This document shows positions 3,183-15,577 of a stretch of DNA of 64,000 nucleotides, in pieces (within the stretch, counting starts at the first letter, position 1; each line of letters opens with the position of its first letter). Made by a program: the position numbers and the translations under genes. The notes under the pieces are model-generated. The model saw nothing but the letters and a program-made list of their open reading frames with translations, was not told the origin of the DNA and searched no databases. Origin of the DNA: Poseidonibacter antarcticus (GTDB lineage Bacteria; Campylobacterota; Campylobacteria; Campylobacterales; Arcobacteraceae); the NCBI RefSeq assembly GCF_003667345.1, contig NZ_RCWF01000005.1, forward strand, positions 124,001 through 188,000, written 5' to 3'.

Positions 3183-4345
3183 AAAAATTATCACCAGTAA
3201 CACTATTAACATTATCTGCATTTATACCTATCTTAGCTTTTACAAATGAAAGTGAAGTATTATCAAATACAAAACAAGAAATTATAAAATTAAAACAAGA
3301 ACAAATAAAACAAAAAGAACAATCAAATAAATATGATTGGATTTCTGATGTTGATTTAAATGCAAGTATTACAAAAGATGAAGATAATACAAAAACAAAA
3401 GATTACTCTTTATCAATTTCACAAGATATATTTAACTTTGGTGGTATTAGTTCACAAATGGATTATGCAACACAACTTAAAAAAATGGAAAACTTAGATT
3501 TACAAATCAGTACAAAAGATGATTTGAATACACTTTTCTCTTATTTAATAGACGTCAAAATAAATGATATATCTTTGGAACAAAATATATATTATCTTAA
3601 AAATAGCCAAATTGATATAAGAAATAAAAAATCAGAATACAAAGCAGGGCAACTAGATATTAGCGATTTAAACGATGCAATTATGACAAAAAATGAACTA
3701 AGCGATACACAAAAAGAGTTAGAATTATCAAAACTAGTAAATATAAATAGCATAAAAAAATATACATCAAAGAACTATAAAACAATAGAAATACCAAATG
3801 TAAAACTAATGACAAAAGAAATATATCTACAAAATGCAACATCAGTAAACTATGCAAAACTTGATATTGATGTAAATAAGTCATTATATAAAATCAAAAA
3901 AAGTGATTATTTACCTACATTAGCAGCAACAGGAACATATGGATACCAAGATAGTGATACAATTGAAAATGATGATTACTATAATTATGGATTAAAAGTA
4001 TCAATGCCACTTAGCTATACAGCATCAAGTGATATAGAACAAACAAAACTAGATCAACTAATAAGTCAAAAAGAGTTAGCAGATGAACTAATAAGCAGTG
4101 AATCTACATACGAAGAAGCCATCTTAACAATAAAAAGTTATAAAGATAGAATTAACCTTGCCTTACAAGATATAAAGCTATATGATGAGCTATTAGAGGT
4201 AAATGAAGAAGAATACAAGGCAGGATATAAAACAATCGATGATGTTGATACATTAAAAAACTCAAAAATGATTAGAGCACTAGATATAAAGTCATATAAA
4301 TTGAATATTCAAAAAGAAATATTAAATCTATATTTTAAAATGTAG
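3179..4345 (+). CDS. TolC-family outer-membrane efflux channel
   Basis: The 388-residue product has an N-terminal export signal and long alternating helices with the TolC/OEP pattern. Examples are the segments around YDWISDVDLNASITKDE and LAATGTYGYQDSD, and the C-terminal repeat of the same helix pair (YDELLEVNEEEYKAGYKTIDDV). It would form the outer-membrane exit duct for the pump encoded just upstream. Its ATG overlaps the adaptor stop (ATGA), which is typical of translational coupling. It is somewhat short for the family (about 420-480). No strong terminator follows. Confidence 0.85.
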   Translation: MKKLSPVTLLTLSAFIPILAFTNESEVLSNTKQEIIKLKQEQIKQKEQSNKYDWISDVDLNASITKDEDNTKTKDYSLSISQDIFNFGGISSQMDYATQLKKMENLDLQISTKDDLNTLFSYLIDVKINDISLEQNIYYLKNSQIDIRNKKSEYKAGQLDISDLNDAIMTKNELSDTQKELELSKLVNINSIKKYTSKNYKTIEIPNVKLMTKEIYLQNATSVNYAKLDIDVNKSLYKIKKSDYLPTLAATGTYGYQDSDTIENDDYYNYGLKVSMPLSYTASSDIEQTKLDQLISQKELADELISSESTYEEAILTIKSYKDRINLALQDIKLYDELLEVNEEEYKAGYKTIDDVDTLKNSKMIRALDIKSYKLNIQKEILNLYFKM

Positions 4346-4669: not shown

Positions 4670-7276
4670 TTAGATTACTTCCCAATAATTCTTCCAATAT
4701 TTTATATCAAAGGTATCTATATCTTTATAATAGTCAACTAGGTCATCAAAAAAATTCTTTTTTATTTTTTGAATATCATTTTTATTATTGATTTGATTCC
4801 ATAAAATATTTGAGAAAGCAATATTATTTAAATCTTTACAATGATACATAAATCTTTTTCTTTCAAATTTTTCAAATGGATTTGCTAAAATATTTTTCTT
4901 TACTTTTGAATTATCATCGATAAAATCTTGATTTTCAAAAGGACTTTTATTTCTATCTATTTTAAGATTATTATCTAATCTATATTGATAAAACTTTTTA
5001 AACTCTAAAAGTAAATTATCTAAATTGACTTCACCGTTATGATCAATAGATTTTAATAATGACAATATAAAAATCATTTTATAAGAAAGTGAATATGTAC
5101 CCTCATCTATAAACTCAAAAAAATCTTCATAAATTGTTTTATCACTATGAACTTTTAAATTTTTAGCTTTTCTTATTTTATCTATTTGTGAAGCTTCATA
5201 ATAATTCAAAAACTGTTTTCCTATAGAAATCTGAACATCTGGTTTGACTTCTTTTTTCTTAACCCATTTTCGTAATGTTCCAGTTGAAATATAAAGCTCT
5301 CGTGCAAGCTGTTCATCACTTAAATAATCTGCATATTTTTCTTCAAATGTAAAAATATCAATATATTCAAGTTTTCGCTCTTCTTCATAAAGTCCATCAA
5401 GTAGAATTTCTTCATGAGATAATTTATTTGGATTCAATATATCACCCCAAGGTTTATATTCTGATATACCTAACAGCGCATGAATTGACCAAGGTGAATT
5501 TTTAAATGTTCCAGCCCCTCCATAATTATCAACTATATCAATTACATAAAGTGCTTCTTTATCTTTATATTTTCGTGTTCCTCTTCCTATTTGTTGTGTA
5601 TATAAAACTTTTGACATAGTCGGTCTTGCCATCACTATTATCGAAGTTCTAGGAGAATCCCACCCTTCATTCAGTAATGAACAAGTTGTTAAAAATTGGA
5701 TTTTTCCATTTTGATACTCTTCAATATATTTTTGAGAGTTGTTGTCATTTCCACTTACAGCTTTACAAGAAATTTCATTATCTTGTAAAAGTTTTGCTAC
5801 TTTTTTTGCATGAGCAACCGATACACAAAAAATCAGTCCTGATTTAAATGGCATAGTTTTATCTATAAAATATTTTTGCATAATATCAACAATAAGTTGA
5901 TCTCTTGATGGAGCTATTACCGTTTTTTGTAAATCTATTGAATAGTAATCTTTTCCATTAAATCTAACTTCTGATAAATCAATATTACTTTGAACTCTAA
6001 AAGCTTTGATTGGTGACAATATATCTTGTTTTATAGCTTCCACTAAAGTTAAATTTGATTCATATTTACCAAATATTTCTGCTAAACTTTTTTCATCAAG
6101 TCTTTTATCTGTTGCTGTTAGTCCTAAAAGCATTTGTGGGTTAAAGTATTGAATAACTTTTTGTAAAGTTGGTGCAACTGCATGATGAGCTTCATCGATT
6201 GCAACATAATCAAAATCTAAACTATTGAAGTTTTGATAATATCTACTCATCCAAGAATATGTTTGAATAACAATTTGGGAATTTCTTTCTTCACCAATTA
6301 GAATTTCAGCATTTAGTTCATTTTCAAATCTACAATTTACTTTTTTAATAGTGTCAATTTTCAACTGTTTTGTAGGAACTAAAATCAAAACTTTTAAATC
6401 AGTATCTTTTTTATATTGGTTTATGATATCAGCAATTAATATTTCTGTTTTCCCTGTACCAGTGGGAAGAACAACCAAAAAGTTTTTTTCTCCATTCTCT
6501 CTTCTTTCTTCAAGTTCATTGAGTGAATTAAGTTGGTGATTTAAAAGTATAATCTGTCTTGAAACTGAAAGTTTTTGTAAGTCTTCTAAATCTTCAATAT
6601 TTCCAACATATTTTTTTATTTCATCATAAAAATTTTCTGTTGTTTTCATTCCTTCTAAAGACCATCGGAAAACTTTAAATCCATAAGCTACTAATGAGTT
6701 TTGTTTATATAGTTGTGATTTATACTTCATTTTCCCTATAATTATTGGATGATGATAAGTCTCTCCATTTTTCTCTATTGCTATATTATAGTTCTTATGT
6801 TTTATAAAATAGTCAATCCATCTTGTTTGACCTTTGAAATCAATGACTGGAAATTCTCTTCTAATCTTTGATAATGATTCTCTTCCATAACAATTAATAA
6901 ATGCCGATTCAAAATAAGCTTCAGGTAATGTTGGGTCAATTTCTTTTAACTCTCTATTTGTTCCTCTTTGCTTGATATTATCTTCATTAAAATCATGATT
7001 TTGGATATGTGAATAAATAGATTTAAATTCTTCAAAATCTTTTTTATCATCAATTACAAATCTGTAGCAAGAATTATATTTTGATATTAAAGAGTTTTGT
7101 TCTTTTGTGTATTCGTTGTATTTAAAAGGGTTTGTTTTATCACAAATTTGATAATCAATTATAATTGCATTGTTATTTGAATCAACTAATAAAAAACCCC
7201 TCAAGAGTTCCTTTTCAAAATCAAAGATATTTTTTAAGAAATTACGAATATCTTTTTTTAAAATTTCTAGATACAT
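4670..7276 (-). CDS. SF2 DEAD/DEAH helicase fused to a PD-(D/E)xK-like nuclease domain
   Basis: This is an 868-residue multidomain protein. Around residues 110-210 a Vsr/DUF559-like nuclease fold is suggested by D155 in TRWIDYF, E168 in IAIEKNG and the following HH. A complete superfamily 2 helicase core follows: Walker A LPTGTGKTE (about 270), DEAH box at 361-364, TAT motif near 390, EGWDSPR near 540 and QQIGRGTR near 561-568. Residues about 650-700 look like a small helix-turn-helix (SDEQLARELYISTGTLRKW). The C-terminal 170 residues are unassigned. This build resembles R subunits of restriction systems and solitary defence or repair helicases. A SAM methyltransferase gene ends 1 bp upstream, so the two are surely co-transcribed. 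A role in DNA processing or phage defence is inference. Confidence 0.85.
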   Translation of the reverse strand: MYLEILKKDIRNFLKNIFDFEKELLRGFLLVDSNNNAIIIDYQICDKTNPFKYNEYTKEQNSLISKYNSCYRFVIDDKKDFEEFKSIYSHIQNHDFNEDNIKQRGTNRELKEIDPTLPEAYFESAFINCYGRESLSKIRREFPVIDFKGQTRWIDYFIKHKNYNIAIEKNGETYHHPIIIGKMKYKSQLYKQNSLVAYGFKVFRWSLEGMKTTENFYDEIKKYVGNIEDLEDLQKLSVSRQIILLNHQLNSLNELEERRENGEKNFLVVLPTGTGKTEILIADIINQYKKDTDLKVLILVPTKQLKIDTIKKVNCRFENELNAEILIGEERNSQIVIQTYSWMSRYYQNFNSLDFDYVAIDEAHHAVAPTLQKVIQYFNPQMLLGLTATDKRLDEKSLAEIFGKYESNLTLVEAIKQDILSPIKAFRVQSNIDLSEVRFNGKDYYSIDLQKTVIAPSRDQLIVDIMQKYFIDKTMPFKSGLIFCVSVAHAKKVAKLLQDNEISCKAVSGNDNNSQKYIEEYQNGKIQFLTTCSLLNEGWDSPRTSIIVMARPTMSKVLYTQQIGRGTRKYKDKEALYVIDIVDNYGGAGTFKNSPWSIHALLGISEYKPWGDILNPNKLSHEEILLDGLYEEERKLEYIDIFTFEEKYADYLSDEQLARELYISTGTLRKWVKKKEVKPDVQISIGKQFLNYYEASQIDKIRKAKNLKVHSDKTIYEDFFEFIDEGTYSLSYKMIFILSLLKSIDHNGEVNLDNLLLEFKKFYQYRLDNNLKIDRNKSPFENQDFIDDNSKVKKNILANPFEKFERKRFMYHCKDLNNIAFSNILWNQINNKNDIQKIKKNFFDDLVDYYKDIDTFDIKYWKNYWEVI

Positions 7277-7277
7277 A

Positions 7278-7889
7278 CTATTTCTTTGCTATTAAGGTAA
7301 GCCATTCTATTCCATCTCTATTTAATCCATCTTTATTTATTTTTGTCTCAATAATTCTAAATCCTACACTTTCACAAATCTCTATCCATTCGTCAATTTT
7401 TAAAACTAAAAAAAATCTTCCTTTTTTATCGAAACCATTTTCACCAATATCATCTCTAAATAACGATACTGACATTAAAAATCTTCCATTCAAATTTAAT
7501 ATGTTATAAATGTTTTTAATTGTTTGTTTTAAATCATTTTTTGATAAATGCATTAGTGTTGCAATTGAATAAATTCCATCAAATTTTTTATCAAATTTTA
7601 AATTATTTGGCAAAATACTATGAAATAGTCTTTGTGATAATTCAGGGTGAATCATTTTTGCTTCTTCAATCATCTTTTTTGATCCATCAATTCCTATAAC
7701 ATTATAGTTATTCTGAATCATAAATCCAGCATCTCGACCTGAACCACAACCAATTTCAAGTAATTTGGAGTTTGTAGAAAATGTTTTTAATAAAAGATTT
7801 TGGACTTTATCTACATTTGCTAATTCATATTGAGTTATAAGGGAGGATGAGTTATTTTCATAATAAGTTATAGTATGTGAATATTCCAA
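7278..7889 (-). CDS. Class I SAM-dependent methyltransferase
   Basis: The product contains the SAM-binding glycine loop LLEIGCGSGRDAGFMI, the acidic end of strand 2 (VIGIDGSKKM) and the motif IYSIATLMHL, as in small class I methyltransferases. I place the start at a TTG at 7889, which has AAGGA 7 bases upstream and gives 203 residues. The longer open frame to a GTG at 7943 would begin inside the tRNA terminator hairpin, so I reject it. The gene is immediately followed by the nuclease-helicase gene. The substrate is unknown. The fold alone does not say DNA, and no typical DNA methylase motif (DPPY or NPPY) is present, so it may modify a small molecule, RNA or protein. Confidence 0.78.
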   Translation of the reverse strand: MEYSHTITYYENNSSSLITQYELANVDKVQNLLLKTFSTNSKLLEIGCGSGRDAGFMIQNNYNVIGIDGSKKMIEEAKMIHPELSQRLFHSILPNNLKFDKKFDGIYSIATLMHLSKNDLKQTIKNIYNILNLNGRFLMSVSLFRDDIGENGFDKKGRFFLVLKIDEWIEICESVGFRIIETKINKDGLNRDGIEWLTLIAKK

Positions 7890-7922
7890 GTAATATTCCT
7901 TATAATATAATTTTGTATAATT

Positions 7923-7967
7923 AAAAAAGCCCGACCTAAACACTGTAAACAGTGATTAGATCGGGCT
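7923..7967 (-). terminator. Rho-independent terminator of tRNA-Arg
   Basis: Read on the minus strand, AGCCCGATCTAA pairs with TTAGGTCGGGCT (one G-U), and an inner CACTG/CAGTG pair closes a short loop. A run of six T follows. It sits just 3' of the tRNA gene in the direction of transcription. Confidence 0.88.
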
Positions 7968-7973
7968 TCTAAA

Positions 7974-8050
7974 TGGTACGCCTGACAGGAGTCGAACCTG
8001 TAACCGCCGGGGCCGAAACCCAGTGCTCTATCCAGTTGAGCCACAGACGC
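7974..8050 (-). tRNA. tRNA-Arg (anticodon TCG)
   Basis: The 77-nt minus-strand sequence folds as a tRNA. GCGTCTG pairs with CAGGCGT in the acceptor stem. The D arm has GCTC/GAGC. The anticodon stem is CTGGG/CCCGG around loop TTTCGGC, which gives anticodon TCG. The T arm contains GGTTCGACTCC, and an A plus encoded CCA ends the gene. The 5' half and leader (8005-8056) are an exact copy of sequence at 14618-14669. The functional gene is therefore a hybrid of chromosomal 3' half and element-carried 5' half. Confidence 0.96.
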
Positions 8051-8056
8051 ATTTAA
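8005..8056. repeat. attL: 52-bp direct repeat within tRNA-Arg
   Basis: This 52-bp block is identical to 14618-14669. Identity stops sharply on both sides. It spans the tRNA leader, the whole 5' half and the anticodon arm, ending near the variable loop. It marks the left junction of the integrated element. Confidence 0.92.
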
Positions 8057-8062
8057 GACCCT

Positions 8063-8090
8063 TCTATAGGGGTTTGTAGTTATTTGTTAA
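8063..8090 (-). promoter_or_regulatory. Candidate element-supplied promoter for tRNA-Arg
   Basis: On the minus strand TTAACA (8085-8090) and TATAGA (8063-8068) are separated by 16 bp and lie 12 bp before the tRNA 5' end. This sequence lies inside the integrated element. The original promoter (TATAAT at 14681-14686) is now at the other end of the element, so the tRNA needs a substitute here. Confidence 0.5.
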
Positions 8091-8108
8091 ATACCTTAAT
8101 CAACACTT

Positions 8109-8128
8109 TGTGTATCAGATTGTGTATC
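8109..8128 (+). repeat. Left putative integrase arm site
   Basis: TTGTGTATCAGATTGTGTAT contains two TGTGTAT half sites. A near copy in the same orientation lies at 14547-14566, at almost the same distance (about 52 bp) from the other core repeat. That placement fits arm-type integrase binding sites; no binding data exist here. Confidence 0.5.
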
Positions 8129-8198
8129 GTTAACGGATGGTATTCTACTGTGATTAACTTTAAGAACCTCTTATAAAACTAATGAATTACCTATATGT

Positions 8199-8328
8199 GA
8201 ATATATTAGGGTCTGTGAGAGCATACTAAAGGGCTTAAGTCATCTTAGGACTATAGATTGCATTAGTTAATAGCTTCAAGATGCTCTGACAGAAGACCTA
8301 AAGAGACACTTATTCTCATTGCTATACC
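8199..8328 (-). repeat. Structured repeat unit 1
   Basis: This is the leftmost unit. The left outer arm is degraded, but the core and right arm are intact. The inner stem uses AGAGCAT with ATGCTCT. It differs from the other units in carrying three extra bases near the AGAAGACC segment. The strand is assigned by the weak wobble-pair argument that favours the minus strand. Confidence 0.75.
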
Positions 8329-8412
8329 AATCACATTACTACTTGTATAAAGGGTGTCTGTATTTGAGACAACCATCCAAAGCTATCACTATAAGTATTT
8401 ATGTTCAGGATT

Positions 8413-8547
8413 AGAATAAGGTTGCTATAGGTCATCTGTGAGGCATCTAGAAGGCCTTAATTATAGTGAGGCTTATAGATTGCATTACTTAATAGCTTGA
8501 GGATGCTCTGACAGAGCTACAGAGACACTTATTCTCATTGCTATACC
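8413..8547 (-). repeat. Structured repeat unit 2
   Basis: This is a full unit with both outer arms (AGAATAAG and CTTATTCT). The inner stem is of the GAGGCATC with GATGCTCT type. The preceding spacer contains the small hairpin GTCTGTATTTGAGAC. Confidence 0.8.
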
Positions 8548-8717
8548 TTATCCACTATCAGGGTTTCTATTACTAACAGTTTTGTTAATAATGTAATCTT
8601 GACCTTATCTCTACCTAACTACTTCTCTGAGTTTTCGTCAAGGTTGACGATAAGGTAATCCTATAAAACTTATTGAGGTTGCTATAGCTCATCTGTATTT
8701 GTATATATGTTTAGTAT

Positions 8718-8850
8718 GAGAATAAGGTTGCTATAGGTCTGTGAGAGTATCCTGAAGGGCTTAACTATAGTGAGGCTTATAGATTGCATTAGTTAATAGT
8801 ATAGGTGCCTTCAGGCAGAGCTACAGAGACACTTATTCTCATTGCTATAC
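8718..8850 (-). repeat. Structured repeat unit 3
   Basis: This is the most regular copy. The outer stem GAGAATAAG/CTTATTCTC is perfect and the inner stem CCTGAAGG/CCTTCAGG is perfect. A detached fragment of the left arm (GAGGTTGCTATAG) sits at 8675-8687, in the spacer before it. Confidence 0.85.
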
Positions 8851-8928
8851 ACACGTCTATCCATTATGGCTACCGTCATACCTAACTTACGCTCGACATT
8901 TTAGCGACCGTCCCATTAACATAACAGA

Positions 8929-8943
8929 TGTCCAAAATGGACA
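8929..8943. repeat. Spacer palindrome TGTCCAAAATGGACA
   Basis: This is a perfect 6-bp inverted repeat with a 3-bp centre, in the spacer between units 3 and 4. Related TGTC-TTTTGG-ACA sequences occur in other spacers (8353-8374, 9447-9467 and 10070-10084), so it is a second small repeat family. It could be an operator or a short RNA hairpin. Confidence 0.6.
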
Positions 8944-8966
8944 CTTGTAGAAAACTACTAAGTATA

Positions 8967-9101
8967 AGGATAAGGTTGCTATAGGTCATCTGTGAGAGCA
9001 TCTAGAAGGGCTTAAGTCTAGTGAGGCTTATAGATTGCATTAGTTAATAGCTAAAGTGGCTTCAAGCAGAGCTATAGAGACACTTATTCTCATTGCTATA
9101 G
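8967..9101 (-). repeat. Structured repeat unit 4
   Basis: This is a complete unit with a slightly altered left arm (GGATAAGG). The inner stem pairs the AGAAG and CTTCA segments. A GTGGCTTCAAGCAGAGC module replaces the GATGCTCTGA version of units 1 and 2. Confidence 0.8.
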
Positions 9102-9303
9102 CTTGTTTCTTAGTTAAGTTATAGGTCATTATCCAATTATTAACTACACCTCTCTTGTCATAACTAGCACTGTCACGTTCTGTTGCAGTGACAATAAAGT
9201 GCTTACCTTCTTCATAGCCTTATCATACGTAATACGAGTTTCTCGTAAAACCCCAAAGCTAGGCTCTTTAGCTATCACTATAAGTATATTTAGTGTTAAG
9301 GAT

Positions 9304-9430
9304 GAGAACAAGGTTGCTGTAGGTCATCTGTGAGGAACCTAGAAGGGCTTAAGTCACCTAAGGGCTTATGATTGTATTACTAAATAGCTTCAGGATGCTC
9401 TGAGAGAGACACTTATTCTAATCCTATACC
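9304..9430 (-). repeat. Structured repeat unit 5
   Basis: The core is shortened. The outer arms are GAGAACAAG and CTTATTCTA. The C-A mismatch on the plus strand becomes a U-G pair on the minus strand. The preceding spacer (9102-9303) is the longest before a full unit and contains a CACTG/CAGTG hairpin at 9168-9193. Confidence 0.75.
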
Positions 9431-9572
9431 TCATCACATTACACATTGGGTGTCCGTTTTGGCCAACCAAAGTTAACTAACAGTTCTGACTTTAGCTCTC
9501 TTAACTTTCTTCAAGTTCACCTGAGGTTATCGCCATTTTGGCTAAAACCCCAAAGCTAGGTCTATAAGTATT

Positions 9573-9703
9573 AGAATAAGGTTGCTATAGGTCTGTCAGA
9601 GCATACTGAAGGCCTTAAGTTAAGTGGGGCCTATAGATTGTATTAGCTAATAGTATAGGTATCTTCAGGCAGAGCTACAGAAACACTTATTCTAATCCTA
9701 GAC
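9573..9703 (-). repeat. Structured repeat unit 6
   Basis: This is a full unit whose outer stem has changed on both sides (TTAGAATAAG with CTTATTCTAA) and stays perfectly paired. A further GGTCTA/TAGACC pair lies outside it. It is the clearest case of compensatory change in the array. Confidence 0.82.
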
Positions 9704-9717
9704 CTTATCACCTACAG

Positions 9718-9741
9718 CTCACTAACAGATTCGTTAATGAG
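9718..9741. repeat. Spacer hairpin between units 6 and 7
   Basis: CTCACTAAC pairs with GTTAATGAG with a single C-A mismatch on the plus strand, which would be a G-U pair in a minus-strand RNA. The loop is 6 nt. Confidence 0.6.
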
Positions 9742-9749
9742 TATTAAGT

Positions 9750-9881
9750 GAGAATAAGGTTGCTATAGGTCTGTGAGAGTATCCTGAAGGGCTTAACTAT
9801 AGTGAGGCTTATAGATTGCATTAGTTGATAACTAAAGTGGCTTCAAGCAGAGCTACAGAAACACTTATTCTTATCTTATAG
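9750..9881 (-). repeat. Structured repeat unit 7
   Basis: This is a full unit with outer arms GAGAATAAG and CTTATTCTTATC and inner CCTGAAG/CTTCAAG. Within the outer stem one pair is G-T on the plus strand, the only copy that argues against minus-strand transcription. Confidence 0.8.
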
Positions 9882-9886
9882 CTCGT

Positions 9887-9902
9887 TACTCACTTTTGAG
9901 TA
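9887..9902. repeat. Spacer hairpin between units 7 and 8
   Basis: TACTCA and TGAGTA form a perfect 6-bp stem with a CTTT loop. It is the small palindrome expected in each spacer of the array. Confidence 0.6.
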
Positions 9903-9922
9903 TGATGAAGTCCTTTAGCATA

Positions 9923-10055
9923 AAGAACAAGGTTGCTATAGGTCTGTCAGAGCATACTGAAGGCCTTAACTATAGTGAGGCTAATAGATTGCATTGGTTA
10001 ATAGCTAAAGTGGCTTCAAGCAGAGCTACAGAAACACTTATTCTTACCCTATACC
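9923..10055 (-). repeat. Structured repeat unit 8
   Basis: This is a full unit. The outer arms AAGAACAAG and CTTATTCTT have changed together relative to unit 3 and contain one C-A (plus) or U-G (minus) pair. Confidence 0.8.
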
Positions 10056-10112
10056 GTTAACACACTAGATGTCTATTTTGGACAACTGCCTAAAGCTAGG
10101 TCTATAAGTATT

Positions 10113-10243
10113 AGAACAAGATTGCTGTAGGTCTGTGAGAGTATCCTGAAGGTCTTAACTCTAGTGAGGCTTATAGATTGCATAGGTTAATGGTATAGAT
10201 GCCTTCAGGCAGAGCTACAGAGATACTTATTCTCATTGCTATA
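10113..10243 (-). repeat. Structured repeat unit 9
   Basis: This is a full unit with AGAACAAG and CTTATTCT arms and a TCCTGAAGG/CCTTCAGG inner stem. The spacer before it holds GTCTATTTTGGAC, a member of the small palindrome family. Confidence 0.8.
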
Positions 10244-10319
10244 TCTTTTCCCCTTCAACTCTATTTAAGTTTAAAGTATCCATTTTGGCTACATCACTAT
10301 GAGTATATCTAATGTATTA

Positions 10320-10434
10320 AGAAGAAGGTTGCTGTAGGTCTGTCAGAGCATACTGAAGGGCTTAACTCTAGTGAGGCTTATAGATTGCATTGGTTAATGG
10401 TTTAGGTGCCTTCAGGCAGAGCTACAGAGATACT
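10320..10434 (-). repeat. Structured repeat unit 10 (right arm missing)
   Basis: The core and inner stem are intact, but the unit stops after CTACAGAGATACT. The right outer arm is absent, replaced by the start of a second module type. Confidence 0.72.
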
Positions 10435-10443
10435 AAATTAAAT

Positions 10444-10595
10444 AGATAGTATAAGACAATCACGTAGTAAGTAAGACATAAAGCCATCTATAGCTATCTT
10501 ATGACATCACTCTAGGTGTTTATGTTTAGGGTGTGAATAAGGTTGTTATAGCTCTACTTTAGCTCATCTACAGTTAACCTTATTCTCATCTTATA
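10444..10595. repeat. Second module type, copy 1
   Basis: This segment, starting near AGTATAAGACAATCACG, is similar to 10838-10952. It ends in a compact hairpin in which GAATAAGGTT and AACCTTATTC pair perfectly over 10 bp. That hairpin looks like a minimal version of the large unit's outer stem. Units 10 and 11 are each followed by this module, so a block of about 400 bp was probably duplicated. Confidence 0.65.
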
Positions 10596-10717
10596 AATTA
10601 TCACTATTAGTATTACAGTAAGTCTCACTCTACCTCAACCTAAGTAACTAAAGTTTTCTTCAAGTATATATACCATCATGTCCTTTTAGGTCATACCATA
10701 ATAAACTAATAGATGTG

Positions 10718-10823
10718 TTTGTAGGTCTGTGAGAGCATACTGAGGGCCTTAACTATAGTGAGGCTTATAGATTGCATTAGTTGATAGCTAAAGTGGCTTC
10801 AAGATGCTCTGACAGAAACACTA
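10718..10823 (-). repeat. Structured repeat unit 11 (both outer arms missing)
   Basis: The core from GTAGGTCTGTGAGAG to GATGCTCTGACAGAAACAC is present, with the AGAGCAT/ATGCTCT stem. Both outer arms are lost. Confidence 0.7.
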
Positions 10824-10837
10824 AAAACAAATAGGAG

Positions 10838-10952
10838 CAGTATATGACAACCACGTAGTAAGTGAACCTCAAGTCATCTATAGTTATCTTATGATATAAT
10901 TAGGTATTATGAATAAGGTTGTTATAGCTCTACTTTAGCTCATCTGTAGTCT
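10838..10952. repeat. Second module type, copy 2
   Basis: This segment parallels 10444-10595 (shared ACGTAGTAAGT, CATCTATAG, TATCTTATGA and GAATAAGGTTGTTATAG). The right half of its terminal hairpin is missing, and the Fur-box-like palindrome takes its place. Confidence 0.62.
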
Positions 10953-10969
10953 TAATGATAATCATTATC
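10951..10969. promoter_or_regulatory. Fur-box-like palindrome
   Basis: CTTAATGATAATCATTATC matches 17 of 19 positions of the classical Fur consensus. It is at the end of the repeat array and is not directly upstream of a protein gene. If it is real, it could link array transcription to iron. The match could also be chance in AT-rich DNA. Confidence 0.5.
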
Positions 10970-10982
10970 AATGTGTCCACCT

Positions 10983-11230
10983 TAGGTCTTTACTTTAGTC
11001 TTACTTTAGCTCTACTTTAGTCTTACTATAGCTCTACTTTAGTGTTACTTTAGCTGTTACTTATTCTTATCTTATTTAGTCTTCTTCCTTAACTTTGTTA
11101 TAGGTCATCTTTAGTCTTACTATAGCTCTACTTTAGTGTTACTTTAGTCTTACTTTAGCTGTTACTTATTCTTATCTTATTTAGTCTTCTTCCTTAACTT
11201 TGTTATAGGTCATCTTTAGTGTTACTTTAG
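10983..11230. repeat. CTTTAG-rich tandem repeats
   Basis: Short units of 10-11 bp of the type YTTACTTTAG occur back to back. On top of this a larger unit repeats: 11021-11114 and 11115-11218 are almost identical apart from an 11-bp insertion in the second. It lies between the array and the resolvase gene. Confidence 0.75.
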
Positions 11231-11348
11231 TGTGTCTTCACTTTCCCTCTTTCCTATGGGGAGTCGTAAACTCTAGACCCCAAGTATAGGTATCTGTAGA
11301 AATCTTTAGATAACCTTGAAATGATGTTATTTGTAAGCTAAAGTAATT

Positions 11349-11440
11349 GTCTGTGAGAGTGCCTGAGCCTAGCTAAAGTGTTGAAGAATACAATCAGTCA
11401 TGTGAGGGTGACTAAAGCTCTTCATAGGCTCGTATATGCT
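11349..11440. repeat. Degenerate structured-repeat remnant near the resolvase
   Basis: GTCTGTGAGAG, GAGCCTAGCTAAAGTG and nearby sequence recall the core of the large units in the same order and orientation. The outer arms are not recognisable. Confidence 0.45.
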
Positions 11441-11474
11441 TTTATTTAAGTGTGTTTATAAGTTGTGGTTAATA

Positions 11475-12146
11475 TTACCTATCTAGTATTCGCTTAACTT
11501 GCATTGACTGAAACTCTTTGCCATTCTTAGTAGTAATTCCTCGTTCATTAAGTTTCTTAGCTATTGCTCCAAGTGATAAGCCTTTGCTTTTGTATCTCTT
11601 GATTGAAGCTACTACCTTTTGCTCTACGTCATTCTTAAATAATACCTTCTTCTTATCTTGTTCAATAACATCAAAGCCAAAAGGTATAGCTCCACCTAAC
11701 TTCTCACCTTTGGATTTCTTCAAGTCCATTGTTGCTTGAATCCTAGACTTAATCATTTGTCTTTCATAATCAGCAAAAGCAGTTACTATCTGTTCCATTA
11801 GATTAGCCATAGGGTCGTTATTGTCATTCTTAGTATCAATAATTACAAGTTCACAACCTTTACGAGCTAGTTCAGTTCTAATCCAACCCATCTGAAGAAC
11901 ATCTCTAGATAACCTATCAATCTTCTGAACAATAACCTTATCATCCTTCTTGATTGTGTTTAGTAATTCCATAAGCCCTAACCTCTGTTCAAGTTTAGCT
12001 CCACTCTTAGTATCTTTGAATGTTTTAACGATTGGTTCTAGACCATTAGCTTTGGCATAAGTTGTAATAGCTTGTGATTGTATCTCGAATGAGTTTGACT
12101 GTTTATCTTCATCTGTAGATAGTCTCATGTACGAATAGATAGGCAT
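11475..12146 (-). CDS. Small serine recombinase (resolvase/invertase family)
   Basis: The 223-residue protein starts MPIYSYMRLSTDED, where Ser10 is the expected nucleophile. It continues with the resolvase catalytic-domain pattern: KDTKSGAKLEQR, then QKIDRLSRDVLQMG, then MANLMEQIVTAFADYERQMIKSR. A recombinase-type segment (GEKLGGAIPFGF) and a short helix-turn-helix (GLSLGAIAKKLNERGI) end it. It is closer in size to resolvases and invertases than to large phage serine integrases. The start has AAGGAG 8 bases upstream. It reads toward the repeat array, so a long transcript from here could cover the array. Its recombination sites are not known; the spacer palindromes are candidates only by position. 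Confidence 0.9.
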   Translation of the reverse strand: MPIYSYMRLSTDEDKQSNSFEIQSQAITTYAKANGLEPIVKTFKDTKSGAKLEQRLGLMELLNTIKKDDKVIVQKIDRLSRDVLQMGWIRTELARKGCELVIIDTKNDNNDPMANLMEQIVTAFADYERQMIKSRIQATMDLKKSKGEKLGGAIPFGFDVIEQDKKKVLFKNDVEQKVVASIKRYKSKGLSLGAIAKKLNERGITTKNGKEFQSMQVKRILDR

Positions 12147-12565
12147 TTAGTGACTCCTTTAAGGTTTGCATTTGTAACACTTCAACTGAACTGTTATGAA
12201 ATCTTAACAAAAATAGAGGTAATCTGTCAAGTGGTTAAGGTAGAAAACGAATAGGAATAAACAAAAAGGATTAGCTTAAGTGTAGTCATAGGTGTATATA
12301 TAATATGCCTGAGCATCTACAAATAGTTTACCTATACAATTACTTAGGTAAAATAAAACAAAGGCCTTCAGGCAGAGCTATACACTTAAAGATTACTTAA
12401 AGAATAGTTATATGTTGAGTATAGGAGAATTGAAAAAGGGCTATGGGGGAAAATACTCGAGCTGTTTACATATATATGACCTCACAGATATTTTTATAAT
12501 TTTTTAGTATGACTTTAGTGTTGTTTAGGTAGAATACTTTTCATAAATATATAAGGGATTAAATT
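12147..12565. other. Divergent control region between the resolvase and exonuclease genes
   Basis: This 419-bp gap must hold the promoters of two divergent genes. It also contains another degenerate array unit at about 12307-12390. There GCCTGA (12307-12312) pairs with TCAGGC (12368-12373), the TTTACCTA/TAGGTAAA hairpin lies inside, and GCCTTCAGGCAGAGCTA is identical to the core of the large units. No ORF is credible. Confidence 0.55.
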
Positions 12566-13219
12566 ATGGAAGTAGTATTAGTAGTATTGGTAGTTTGTTA
12601 TTTGATTTGGTATTACTTCATAAGAAAAAAACCAAACAACACTGCAAGTAAGAAAACGTATAGTGACAGAGATAGTAAGAAAATATATCGTAAGAATCAG
12701 GCTGATAGCTTTATTGTATTAGACATTGAAACTACAGGACTAAAGCAAGAAACTTGTAAAATAATTGAGATTGGTGCAATAAAGATAAATAATATAAATG
12801 ATAAAGAACACCAAACATTCCATACTATGATAAAAATAGACAATAAATTACCAAAGAAAATAAAAGACTTAACTGGTATTACTGATAGTGATTTAGAAGA
12901 TGGAATAACTCTACATGAGGCCTTAGTAAGCTTTAGTGAATTTGCAAAAGATAATGTAATAGTAGCACATAATGCTCCTTTTGACTTAGGGTTTATTAGA
13001 CATAACATGAAGCAAGAAGGTATAGAGTTTTCTATAAGCAAGGCTATAGATACACTAGAGCTTTCAAGAGATGTATTTCCTCATTTAAAAAGTTATAAAC
13101 TTGGAGCTCTTGCAGACTACATAGGTATTGATAAAGGGAATGCTCATAGAGCTATAGATGATGCAAAAGTTACACTCTTACTGTATACAACTTGTTTAGA
13201 ATTACTTAAGAAGAAGTGA
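12566..13219 (+). CDS. Membrane-anchored DnaQ/RNase T-like DEDDh 3'-5' exonuclease
   Basis: The 217-residue protein begins with one strong transmembrane helix (VVLVVLVVCYLIWYYFI), followed by a basic linker. From about residue 50 it has all three exonuclease motifs: Exo I DIETTG, Exo II HNAPFDLGFI and Exo III HRAIDDAK, the last in the DEDDh arrangement. Such enzymes remove nucleotides from DNA or RNA 3' ends using two metal ions. Solitary copies are common, but one anchored in the membrane and carried on a small mobile element is unusual. AAGGG lies 8 bases before the ATG. It is the only gene of the element that is not a recombinase, so it is the likely functional partner of the array, if there is one. 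That link is inference. Confidence 0.87.
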   Translation: MEVVLVVLVVCYLIWYYFIRKKPNNTASKKTYSDRDSKKIYRKNQADSFIVLDIETTGLKQETCKIIEIGAIKINNINDKEHQTFHTMIKIDNKLPKKIKDLTGITDSDLEDGITLHEALVSFSEFAKDNVIVAHNAPFDLGFIRHNMKQEGIEFSISKAIDTLELSRDVFPHLKSYKLGALADYIGIDKGNAHRAIDDAKVTLLLYTTCLELLKKK

Positions 13220-13250
13220 CCCGTTTACTAGATTTTCAGTAACCCCTTTC

Positions 13251-14498
13251 CTAGCTATACTCTAGCTTGTTAATAGCTTCCTTCAGTATTGGTAAAGGAT
13301 ACCTACTAGCATATCTACCCATAGTCATACCACTGTGAGAGTGTCCTAGTAGCTCAGAGATGACTAAAGGGTTAACTTCAGTGTACTTCAACTGTGTAGC
13401 TAGAGTATGCCTATAAGAATACAGAACCTTTCTAGGGTTATCTGTAACAAGAGGTTTTACCTTCTCCCTAAACTTCCTACTTATAAATTCATCCCTAAAG
13501 AGTCCCTTGAGTCTGTTATACTTCTTATGCACATCAAGCATGATAAGGTCATTGTGTAAGGGAATCTTTCTATGACTAGATTTAGTCTTAAGTGTTGTAA
13601 TATCTTCGCTGAGGTTTATGTAGTATATTGTGTCCTCTAGGGTTAGTTCAGCTTTTGATAGTTCACTTATTCTCATACCCGTATAAGCAAGAATCTTATA
13701 GATAAGCCTTAAGTTAACATCATCAATAACCTTATCCATTACAGTAAATGACTTCTTAACCTCATCCACTGTGAAAGCTTCTCTCTCTAGTTGTGCTGAA
13801 AGCTCACTCTTTGGTGACTCTAGGAAAGGAGCTATATCAATATCAATGAACCTACAAGCATGACAAAACTTAAAGAACCTTCTAACCCACTTGAGGTACT
13901 TCTTTAGTGTAGTTGTGCTTACCTTATCATCTTCACTTAGTAGTTTAGTATTAAGTAATTGACTAGGTGTCATTGAGCGATAGGGTTGCTTAGTTCTCTT
14001 TGGTACTTCTTTAAGCTTACTCTTGATGTAGTTCAGGTCATCAATATCAACAATCTTCAATACTAACTGCTTACAGATGTACCTAAGTAAGTCATCAAAG
14101 AATCTAATCATTTCATCTCTATTCTTATCTGACAGAGTCTCAGAGCCCTCTAGGTGTTTAATGAACTTATCTATTGCATAAGAATAGTTAACCTCTCTGT
14201 TAGCCTCTACAGTAGTTGAAGAGCCTACTTTCATGTTCAGGATATTGAGGTAAAAGTTCTGTACTAATGCTTTAGTGAGTGCTTTATCAGAGTGACTAAG
14301 TTTAAGAGAAACAATCAACTTATCAAACTCTACATGATAAGCTCTAGCAACCTTCACTGCATTCTTAAAGTTATCAGTTTTAATGCTCTTAGTAATCTCT
14401 AGCTTATCATCAAAGTAAAACCTTAGTTCCTTTGGTATTCTTACTCTAAACTTGAAGCCTGATTTAGTCTTGTAAATGTATGTAGTTTTAGTGACCAT
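13251..14498 (-). CDS. Tyrosine recombinase/integrase of the tRNA-Arg element
   Basis: The 415-residue protein has an N-terminal DNA-binding part and a C-terminal catalytic domain. The catalytic domain has the first Arg in LAYTGMRISELSKAEL, the HxxR-like box SYRHTLATQL, the second His in ELLGHSHSGMTMG and the Tyr nucleophile in GRYASRY. It would cut and join the tRNA-Arg core site. The gene lies beside the right attachment repeat. The only obvious upstream promoter is the displaced tRNA-Arg promoter at about 14681, which now points into this gene through the truncated tRNA. That would let integration switch on its expression. The RBS is an AAAGGG before the ATG. Confidence 0.93.
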   Translation of the reverse strand: MVTKTTYIYKTKSGFKFRVRIPKELRFYFDDKLEITKSIKTDNFKNAVKVARAYHVEFDKLIVSLKLSHSDKALTKALVQNFYLNILNMKVGSSTTVEANREVNYSYAIDKFIKHLEGSETLSDKNRDEMIRFFDDLLRYICKQLVLKIVDIDDLNYIKSKLKEVPKRTKQPYRSMTPSQLLNTKLLSEDDKVSTTTLKKYLKWVRRFFKFCHACRFIDIDIAPFLESPKSELSAQLEREAFTVDEVKKSFTVMDKVIDDVNLRLIYKILAYTGMRISELSKAELTLEDTIYYINLSEDITTLKTKSSHRKIPLHNDLIMLDVHKKYNRLKGLFRDEFISRKFREKVKPLVTDNPRKVLYSYRHTLATQLKYTEVNPLVISELLGHSHSGMTMGRYASRYPLPILKEAINKLEYS

Positions 14499-14546
14499 TA
14501 ATGTAACCCTTTAAGGCTAACGAATGATGATTTAACAACTGAAAGT

Positions 14547-14566
14547 GTGTGTATTAGATTGTGTAT
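14547..14566 (+). repeat. Right putative integrase arm site
   Basis: GTGTGTATTAGATTGTGTAT is the counterpart of 8109-8128, in the same orientation and 51 bp from the right core repeat. Confidence 0.5.
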
Positions 14567-14617
14567 TTGTATCTTAAGAAATAGCTATAGAGCCTATATA
14601 GTGGGGTCTTGAGTTCT

Positions 14618-14663
14618 CGCCGGGGCCGAAACCCAGTGCTCTATCCAGTTGAGCCACAGACGC
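14618..14663 (-). pseudogene. Truncated tRNA-Arg (5' half only)
   Basis: The first 46 nt of the tRNA, from the 5' end through the anticodon arm, remain behind the original promoter. The T arm and acceptor 3' strand are missing, so no tRNA can form. Transcription from the promoter would continue into the integrase region. Confidence 0.85.
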
Positions 14664-14669
14664 ATTTAA
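14618..14669. repeat. attR: 52-bp direct repeat
   Basis: This block is identical to 8005-8056. It marks the right junction of the element. The chromosomal sequence resumes with ATAAGTCCGG. Confidence 0.92.
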
Positions 14670-14680
14670 ATAAGTCCGGA

Positions 14681-14686
14681 ATTATA
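14681..14686 (-). promoter_or_regulatory. Original tRNA-Arg promoter, -10 box
   Basis: A minus-strand TATAAT lies 17 bp before the 5' end of the truncated tRNA, in chromosomal sequence outside the element. It is inferred to be the ancestral tRNA promoter, now reading toward the integrase gene. Confidence 0.7.
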
Positions 14687-14716
14687 CCATAAAAAACTTA
14701 GATAATATTTATTTTA

Positions 14717-15577
14717 TTAAAAAAATATATTATCTAAGACTATAAGTATAAAAAATACAATTCCTAAGTATCCATTTACAGTAAAAAATGCTTTATCTAT
14801 TTTTGTAAAATCTTTATTTACAAGATAATGTTCATATGACAGCATCAGCGCACTTACTATCACTGCAAAATATGCAAAAGCTGAGCTATTTGAATTTATT
14901 ACAAATAACAACCAGAAAAATACAGTTAGTGTATGAAATACTTTTGATATTAGCATTGTTTTTTTAGCACCAAATCTTGAAGGAATAGAATGAAGATTTA
15001 ATTTTTTATCAACTTCTATATCTTGTAAGGAATACAATAAATCAAATCCAGCAACCCAAAACATAACTCCTATACTTAAAAATACACTCCATAAAGGTAT
15101 ATATTCTAAAACTGTTACAACTCCAGCAATTGGTGCAAGTCCTAAAGATATTCCTAATATAATATGAGCTAAATACGAAAATCTTTTAAAATATGAATAA
15201 GAACCAATTACCAATAAAATAGGTATTGATAAATATAAAGCTAAGTCATTTACGAAATAAGCAATTATTATAAATCCTACAGCATTAGCTAGTGTAAATA
15301 TTAACATTTGATTAGCTGAGATTCTACCATCAACATTTGGTCTATTTATTGTTCTTGGATTTAGTGCATCAATATCTCTATCCATATATCTATTAAATCC
15401 CATAGCAAAATTTCGAGCTGTTAGTGCTGCTAAAATACCAAGAAGCATTAATTTAAACCCAAACCAACCATTAGCTGCAACTACCATTGCAATAAAAATA
15501 AAAGGTAAAGAGAATATAGAGTGTTTGAACATTACTAGTTCATTGAAGTCATTAAGTTTTTTTAAGATTTTTTCCAT
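14717..15577 (-). CDS. mqnP: UbiA-family prenyltransferase, probably MqnP of the menaquinone (futalosine) pathway
   Basis: This 286-residue polytopic membrane protein has the UbiA signature NRYMDRDID, whose Asp residues bind magnesium-diphosphate. A second acidic motif is in YSLQDIEVDKK. It transfers a polyprenyl chain to an aromatic acceptor. Campylobacterota make menaquinone by the futalosine route, in which MqnP is the UbiA homologue, so this is the most likely role. An automatic annotation might say 4-hydroxybenzoate polyprenyltransferase. It is the first chromosomal gene right of the element. Confidence 0.85.
   Translation of the reverse strand: MEKILKKLNDFNELVMFKHSIFSLPFIFIAMVVAANGWFGFKLMLLGILAALTARNFAMGFNRYMDRDIDALNPRTINRPNVDGRISANQMLIFTLANAVGFIIIAYFVNDLALYLSIPILLVIGSYSYFKRFSYLAHIILGISLGLAPIAGVVTVLEYIPLWSVFLSIGVMFWVAGFDLLYSLQDIEVDKKLNLHSIPSRFGAKKTMLISKVFHTLTVFFWLLFVINSNSSAFAYFAVIVSALMLSYEHYLVNKDFTKIDKAFFTVNGYLGIVFFILIVLDNIFF

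What the first reader, a model, noticed from the sequence alone, without database searches (positions are those of the whole stretch)
8199..10823. Unrecognised array of eleven large structured repeats fills nearly half of a mobile element
Seen directly: eleven ~105-135-bp units in one orientation with shared landmarks in fixed order, separated by variable spacers, over a stretch with no normal ORF. The units have an outer stem (GAGAATAAG/CTTATTCTC) and inner stems. I know of no CRISPR, integron, retron, REP or tRNA array with these sequences. A compact element spending half its length on this implies function. Options are a tandem non-coding RNA locus, a recombination or partition site array, or decoys.
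Basis: partly seen in the sequence, partly recalled or inferred. Interest (0 to 1): 0.88.

Follow-up and report, generated by a model that had tools for sequence, protein, structure and literature searches.

The report
Amplified noncoding control-module array, mobile element
A small mobile element sitting in a tRNA gene of a Campylobacterales bacterium devotes about 40% of its length to eleven copies of a noncoding, foldable DNA module; related elements carry that module only once or twice, beside their genes, so this one appears to have lost the genes and multiplied the control sequence, for a reason that is still unknown.

Summary
The array is real: eleven same-orientation units (~110-135 bp, mean 86% identical) in unalignable spacers at 8204-10823, no ORF of 60 aa or more, inside an intact 6.6-kb integrative element (52-bp direct repeat, tRNA-Arg, 8005/14618). 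It matches nothing in Rfam, IMG/VR, phage or plasmid collections, and occurs once in its genome. Comparison shows where it comes from. Related elements in two other genomes (G003, G112; same resolvase, 72-73%) carry one or two diverged copies of the unit next to their genes, followed at the cargo gene's stop codon by a conserved noncoding block that the window also has. Those elements encode KilA-N and winged-helix genes; the window element has neither. The array is therefore a tandem amplification of a cis module whose cargo gene is gone, not a decayed gene. The eleven units share a consensus fold on the + strand only (z -4.5 against -0.8), mildly favouring a + strand RNA, but the relatives' copies do not keep that fold and no promoters were found. 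Best guess: a multi-domain + strand RNA acting as a sponge or scaffold for an element-family protein. Close rivals: a DNA binding-site/origin array, resolvase sites, neutral amplification. Mechanism unproven.

The parts
7974..8050 (-). tRNA-Arg(TCG), the integration target
   Evidence: ARAGORN; Rfam
8005..8056 (.). attL: 52-bp direct repeat covering the tRNA 5' part
8204..8325 (+). unit u1 (left outer arm missing)
8413..8545 (+). unit u2
8718..8849 (+). unit u3
8966..9100 (+). unit u4
9304..9431 (+). unit u5 (most diverged)
9572..9702 (+). unit u6
9750..9878 (+). unit u7
9923..10052 (+). unit u8
10112..10245 (+). unit u9
10319..10435 (+). unit u10, fused directly to the T-block
10434..10710 (+). 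T-block: conserved noncoding block that in relatives starts at the cargo stop codon and ends at the wHTH gene 3' end; contains hairpin H at 10524-10604
   Evidence: 68-70% to G003 and G112 over ~290 bp, E 1e-15 to 1e-22; hairpin z -3.7
10714..10823 (+). unit u11, at the place where relatives have the wHTH gene, fused to a second T-block
10825..10960 (+). second, partial T-block
11342..11442 (-). weak unit-like dyad between the lost wHTH site and the resolvase
   Evidence: 11.6 bits, E 0.04; position shared with dyads in G003, G065, G069
11475..12146 (-). serine recombinase (resolvase), 223 aa
   Evidence: Pfam; 72-73% to G003 and G112; dN about 0.18 with dS 1.8 or more
12309..12385 (.). further dyad with the unit's right-arm sequence GCCTTCAGGCAGAGCTATA
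   Evidence: z -3.6
12566..13219 (+). DEDDh 3'-5' exonuclease with an N-terminal hydrophobic segment (cargo)
13251..14498 (-). tyrosine integrase (DUF6538 type)
   Evidence: 70% to G065
14618..14669 (.). attR: 52-bp direct repeat

Best explanation
Origin (well supported): the array is a tandem amplification of a noncoding cis module (unit core plus hairpin-bearing T-block) that related integrative elements carry in one or two copies around their cargo genes; in the window element the cargo, KilA-N and winged-helix genes are absent and the module has multiplied to eleven. Mechanism (inferred): the module is read from the + strand, like the cargo genes of the relatives, as a long RNA in which each unit folds into an outer stem, a middle stem and a local hairpin; the repeated domains act as a multivalent sponge or scaffold for a protein or RNA of this element family, or of a co-resident related element, so that a gene-poor element gains regulation or an advantage over its autonomous relatives.
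For: Diverged unit copies in G112 (4157-4273 E 1e-17, 6454-6571 E 2e-16) and G003 (9172-9278 E 5e-5); the two G112 copies were in the profile, but they were first found as a repeat of their own. G112's second unit and G003's unit lie 32-64 nt before a + strand cargo ORF. T-block conserved at 68-70% from the cargo stop codon to the wHTH gene. KilA-N and wHTH genes absent from the window element and no match in its genome. Consensus fold of the 11 units: + strand z -4.45 (0 of 200 column-shuffles), - strand z -0.81; + z stays between -3.2 and -4.3 when any one unit is dropped. T-block + z -3.2 against - z -0.9. Extra standard pair types exceed all but 4 of 500 shuffles. Hairpin H recurs in five elements with different arm sequences.
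Against: The relatives' units do not keep the fold: adding the two G112 copies gives no consensus pair, and single-sequence z is near 0 for G003 and weak for G112. Single-unit z is similar on both strands (mean about -1.7 and -1.6) and positive for u5. Leaving out both u1 and u5 makes the strands equal. No excess of promoter- or terminator-like sites (Campylobacterota promoters are poorly covered). The sponge step and its target are pure inference; no helper element was found in the host.
Confidence: 0.33

Rival explanations
1. DNA-level binding-site array: each unit is a dyad site (operator or origin site) for a KilA-N, winged-helix or replication protein of this element family; a derivative lacking those genes multiplied the site to recruit or titrate the protein supplied by a related element, as defective replicons amplify their origin.
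For: Dyad arms TCTGTSAGAGCAT / ATGCTCTGACAGA within the units and in relatives. G003's unit lies between divergent KilA-N and cargo genes, and similar dyads lie between the resolvase and wHTH genes in G003 and G069 and upstream of the wHTH-position gene in G065. The low-confidence wHTH model resembles primosome/initiator winged helices (5wtn Z 10.1, RepA_N-type initiators 4pql/4pt7 Z ~7). Vibrio PLE has a 2.7-kb noncoding region with four repeats, one of them the RepA iteron (PMC7145576).
Against: The strand asymmetry of the consensus fold is unexplained. Conservation spans ~110-130 bp, long for iterons. No helper in the host genome. wHTH proteins are a common fold; initiator function is not shown.
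Confidence: 0.3
2. Recombination-site array: the unit is the site of the element's serine resolvase, and [unit-cargo-T-block] modules are cassettes; the window array is a run of emptied cassettes.
For: Unit and resolvase co-occur in 3 of 3 elements with the 72-73% resolvase and the unit is undetected in G065 and G069, which lack it. Units are mosaics with a peak of breakpoints in the conserved centre, cols 79-86 (P 0.006). G112's two copies differ at about 9 of 42 positions left of centre but 2 of 46 right of it (counted by eye).
Against: Breakpoints occur elsewhere too (Rm 8) and the peak weakens without u5 (P 0.07). Ordinary unequal crossover or gene conversion explains mosaics. Eleven direct res sites beside an intact resolvase should delete. 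The resolvase's relatives on small Campylobacter plasmids have no unit.
Confidence: 0.14
3. Neutral amplification: tandem duplication of a junk-like intergenic module, kept alike by gene conversion, with no function.
For: Single occurrence in all genomes searched; mosaic units; truncated copies u1, u10, u11.
Against: Units stay alike while spacers have diverged beyond alignment; element genes are under strong purifying selection; consensus fold beyond column shuffles.
Confidence: 0.23

Closest known systems
Noncoding region of Vibrio PLE phage satellites (PMC7145576)
   Same: A 2-3 kb repeat-bearing noncoding stretch in a small integrative element; there one repeat is the RepA iteron.
   Different: PLE keeps its initiator gene; its repeats are not eleven 130-bp direct units; no sequence relation known or tested.
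PeSL cassettes of T4-like phages (Arbiol et al. 2010, cited in PMC4503421)
   Same: Noncoding hairpin modules flank cargo genes and recur between elements with different cargo.
   Different: No early promoter was found in the units; cargo is absent; the host element is unrelated.
Integron attC arrays
   Same: Direct array of foldable sites with variable spacers.
   Different: No cassette ORFs, no integron integrase match above cutoff, R''/R' boxes not conserved.
Resolvase res sites (Tn3, small plasmids)
   Same: Site of ~110 bp with internal dyads near a serine recombinase.
   Different: Normally one per element; site structure and binding not shown here.
Large ornate phage/plasmid RNAs (GOLLD, ROOL)
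   Same: Large structured noncoding region on a mobile element (own knowledge).
   Different: No Rfam match; repeated domains instead of one fold.

Membership tests
Any Rfam RNA family | Match to a curated covariance model | tested here: not met
   only tRNA reaches its gathering score over 7000-15000
Structured RNA (generic) | Consensus fold beyond shuffled alignments, stronger on one strand | tested here: met
   + z -4.45, - z -0.81 for the eleven paralogues
Structured RNA (generic) | Fold kept in homologues from other elements | tested here: not met
   no shared pairs once G112 units are added; G003 z near 0
Structured RNA (generic) | Expression | not testable with these tools
   no RNA data; promoter-like sites not in excess
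Integron cassette array | Integron integrase gene nearby | tested here: not met
   tyrosine recombinase is DUF6538 type; XerA/integron-integrase model at 44.6 bits against a cutoff of 220
Integron cassette array | Cassette ORFs between sites | tested here: not met
Rep iteron/origin array | Cognate initiator gene in the element | tested here: not met
   wHTH and KilA-N genes absent
Rep iteron/origin array | Initiator binding and origin function | not testable with these tools
   needs EMSA and replication assay
DnaA-box array | HTWTTCACW boxes (A. butzleri consensus, PMC5043019) | tested here: not met
   recurrent outer arm reads TTATTCTCA or variants, without the TTCAC core (read by eye)
Resolvase res site | Co-occurrence with a specific resolvase | tested here: met
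   3 of 3 with, 0 of 2 without; very small sample
Resolvase res site | Crossover by the resolvase at the unit | not testable with these tools
   needs in vitro recombination

The most novel reading that the evidence does not exclude
The array is a transcribed ~2.6-kb RNA built of eleven repeated folded domains: a new kind of large repeat-domain noncoding RNA, being most of the payload of a gene-poor, non-autonomous element that interferes with or exploits its autonomous relatives.
Probability: 0.2. Interest if true: 0.8.

Novelty: new variant of a known kind. Interest (0 to 1): 0.52.

Why it matters
It shows a live integrative element that has apparently dropped its replication and regulatory genes and cargo while multiplying a noncoding module elevenfold. 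If the array is a sponge, origin array or repeat-domain RNA, it would be a compact natural case of one mobile element parasitising another through noncoding sequence, testable with a handful of related elements in one bacterial family.

Tried and rejected
Rfam scan: only the tRNA reaches its gathering score. DNA similarity to phages and plasmids and IMG/VR pattern scans: nothing. Resolvase, integrase and wHTH scans of IMG/VR: nothing; resolvase scan of genome contigs: only the G003 and G112 elements again. Search of 399 order genomes with the profile: apart from the window and G003, only weak scattered hits (E 5e-4 to 8e-3 per genome), treated as chance. Decayed gene: rejected (stops, indels not in threes, homology to noncoding modules). 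DnaA boxes: core absent. Integron: no cassette ORFs and no integron integrase. MFE lower on + in 11 of 11 units was first taken as strand evidence but shuffle z-scores are equal on both strands; only the alignment-level test differs. tblastn for remnants of KilA-N, wHTH and cargo genes in the element: none. Structure of the wHTH protein: low confidence (pLDDT 49), used only as a hint. Literature searches found no description of this element or array.

Full report
OBSERVATION. The repeat search and a profile find eleven direct units in 8204-10823. Units average 86% identity whereas the spacers between them align no better than shuffled spacers in identity. There is no ORF of 60 aa or more from 7944 to 11474. 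The outer stem is complete only in u2-u9. The eleven copies are the only ones in the 2.9-Mb genome.

ELEMENT. The array lies in a 6,613-bp integrative element bounded by a 52-bp direct repeat (8005 and 14618) that covers the 5' part of a tRNA-Arg gene. Its genes are a serine recombinase, a DEDDh exonuclease and a DUF6538-type tyrosine integrase. The recombinase (against G003 and G112) and the integrase (against G065) show dN about 0.2 against saturated or near-saturated dS, so the element family is under selection and not dead.

WHERE THE UNIT COMES FROM. Integrase and resolvase searches in the family found relatives: G003 (tRNA-Ser), G112 (tRNA-Thr), G065 (tRNA-Arg) and, through the winged-helix gene, G069. 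G112 holds two diverged units (4157-4273, 6454-6571) and G003 one (9172-9278). G112's second unit and G003's unit lie just before a + strand cargo ORF. The cargo stop codon opens a conserved noncoding 'T-block' of about 280 bp that runs to the 3' end of a convergent 150-aa winged-helix gene; the window has the same block at 10434-10710, 68-70% identical. In the window, u10 and u11 are fused straight to T-block starts, with no cargo between, and u11 sits where relatives have the winged-helix gene. This last reading is by eye. KilA-N and winged-helix genes are absent from the window element and gave no match in its genome. So the array is an amplified noncoding module with its genes gone; it is not a decayed gene, CRISPR, integron or known RNA.

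RNA OR DNA. Single-unit folding is only modestly better than shuffles and equal on both strands. The alignment-level test differs: the consensus fold of the eleven units has z -4.45 on + (0 of 200 column-shuffles) and -0.81 on -, and the + result survives dropping any one unit. Without both u1 and u5 the strands are equal (-2.2, -2.4). Pair-type counts exceed nearly all shuffles, on a structure derived from the same alignment. The T-block also scores on + only (z -3.2), and hairpin H recurs in five elements with changed arm sequences. Against RNA: the G112 and G003 units do not share the fold, and no promoter-like excess exists. I read this as a mild preference for a + strand RNA.

OTHER MECHANISMS. 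Units are mosaics; breakpoints peak in the conserved centre TTAGTT|AATAG (P 0.006 for all units, 0.015 for the B-form units, 0.07 without u5). That fits resolvase sites, and the unit tracks the resolvase rather than the integrase in the few elements known, but ordinary gene conversion also makes mosaics, and relatives of the resolvase on small Campylobacter plasmids have no unit. A DNA binding-site or origin array is nearly as likely as RNA: dyad arms recur near regulators in relatives, the winged-helix model (low confidence) looks like primosome or plasmid initiator domains, and PLE satellites have an analogous repeat-bearing noncoding origin region (PMC7145576). DnaA boxes of the Arcobacter type (PMC5043019) are not present in the outer arms.

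VERDICT. Shown: the array, its boundaries, its noncoding nature, and its homology to a low-copy module of related elements. Inferred: loss of genes followed by amplification. Not shown: expression, binding, recombination or any effect. The mechanism I commit to, with about one chance in three, is a + strand repeat-domain RNA acting as sponge or scaffold. Interest is above average because the case is odd and testable, but the sample is five elements and the array itself is known once.

Noticed in passing
window 10985-11240: Second repeat region outside the finding: short TTTAGTCTTACTTTAGCTCTAC-type repeats with an 11/22-bp period and a 105-bp duplication.
   Followed up: no
window 12470-12495, L021 12038-12060, L024 9355-9380: Conserved box ATATATGACCYCACAGAT upstream of the + strand cargo gene in three elements; possible promoter or excision control site.
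   Followed up: no
window spacers, e.g. 8926-8944, 9190-9215, 10072-10090: Spacers hold small hairpins of a TGTCCATTTTGGACA type with varying stems.
   Followed up: partly
window 12566-13219: Cargo DnaQ-like exonuclease with an N-terminal hydrophobic segment, similar to CRISPR-associated DEDDh and PDC-S48 defence models.
   Followed up: partly
L055 3391-9299: The related G069 element carries a type I restriction-modification system as cargo and, like G065, an IS21-type insertion with nearly identical transposase.
   Followed up: no
L055 15597-15698: Tandem 60-bp repeat TGTCGGATTAAAGTTCCTTCC..AGGAGAGA in the G069 element upstream of a gene.
   Followed up: no
window 4670-7943: Outside the element: a restriction-type helicase next to a methyltransferase-domain gene, possibly a defence pair beside the tRNA.
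   Followed up: no
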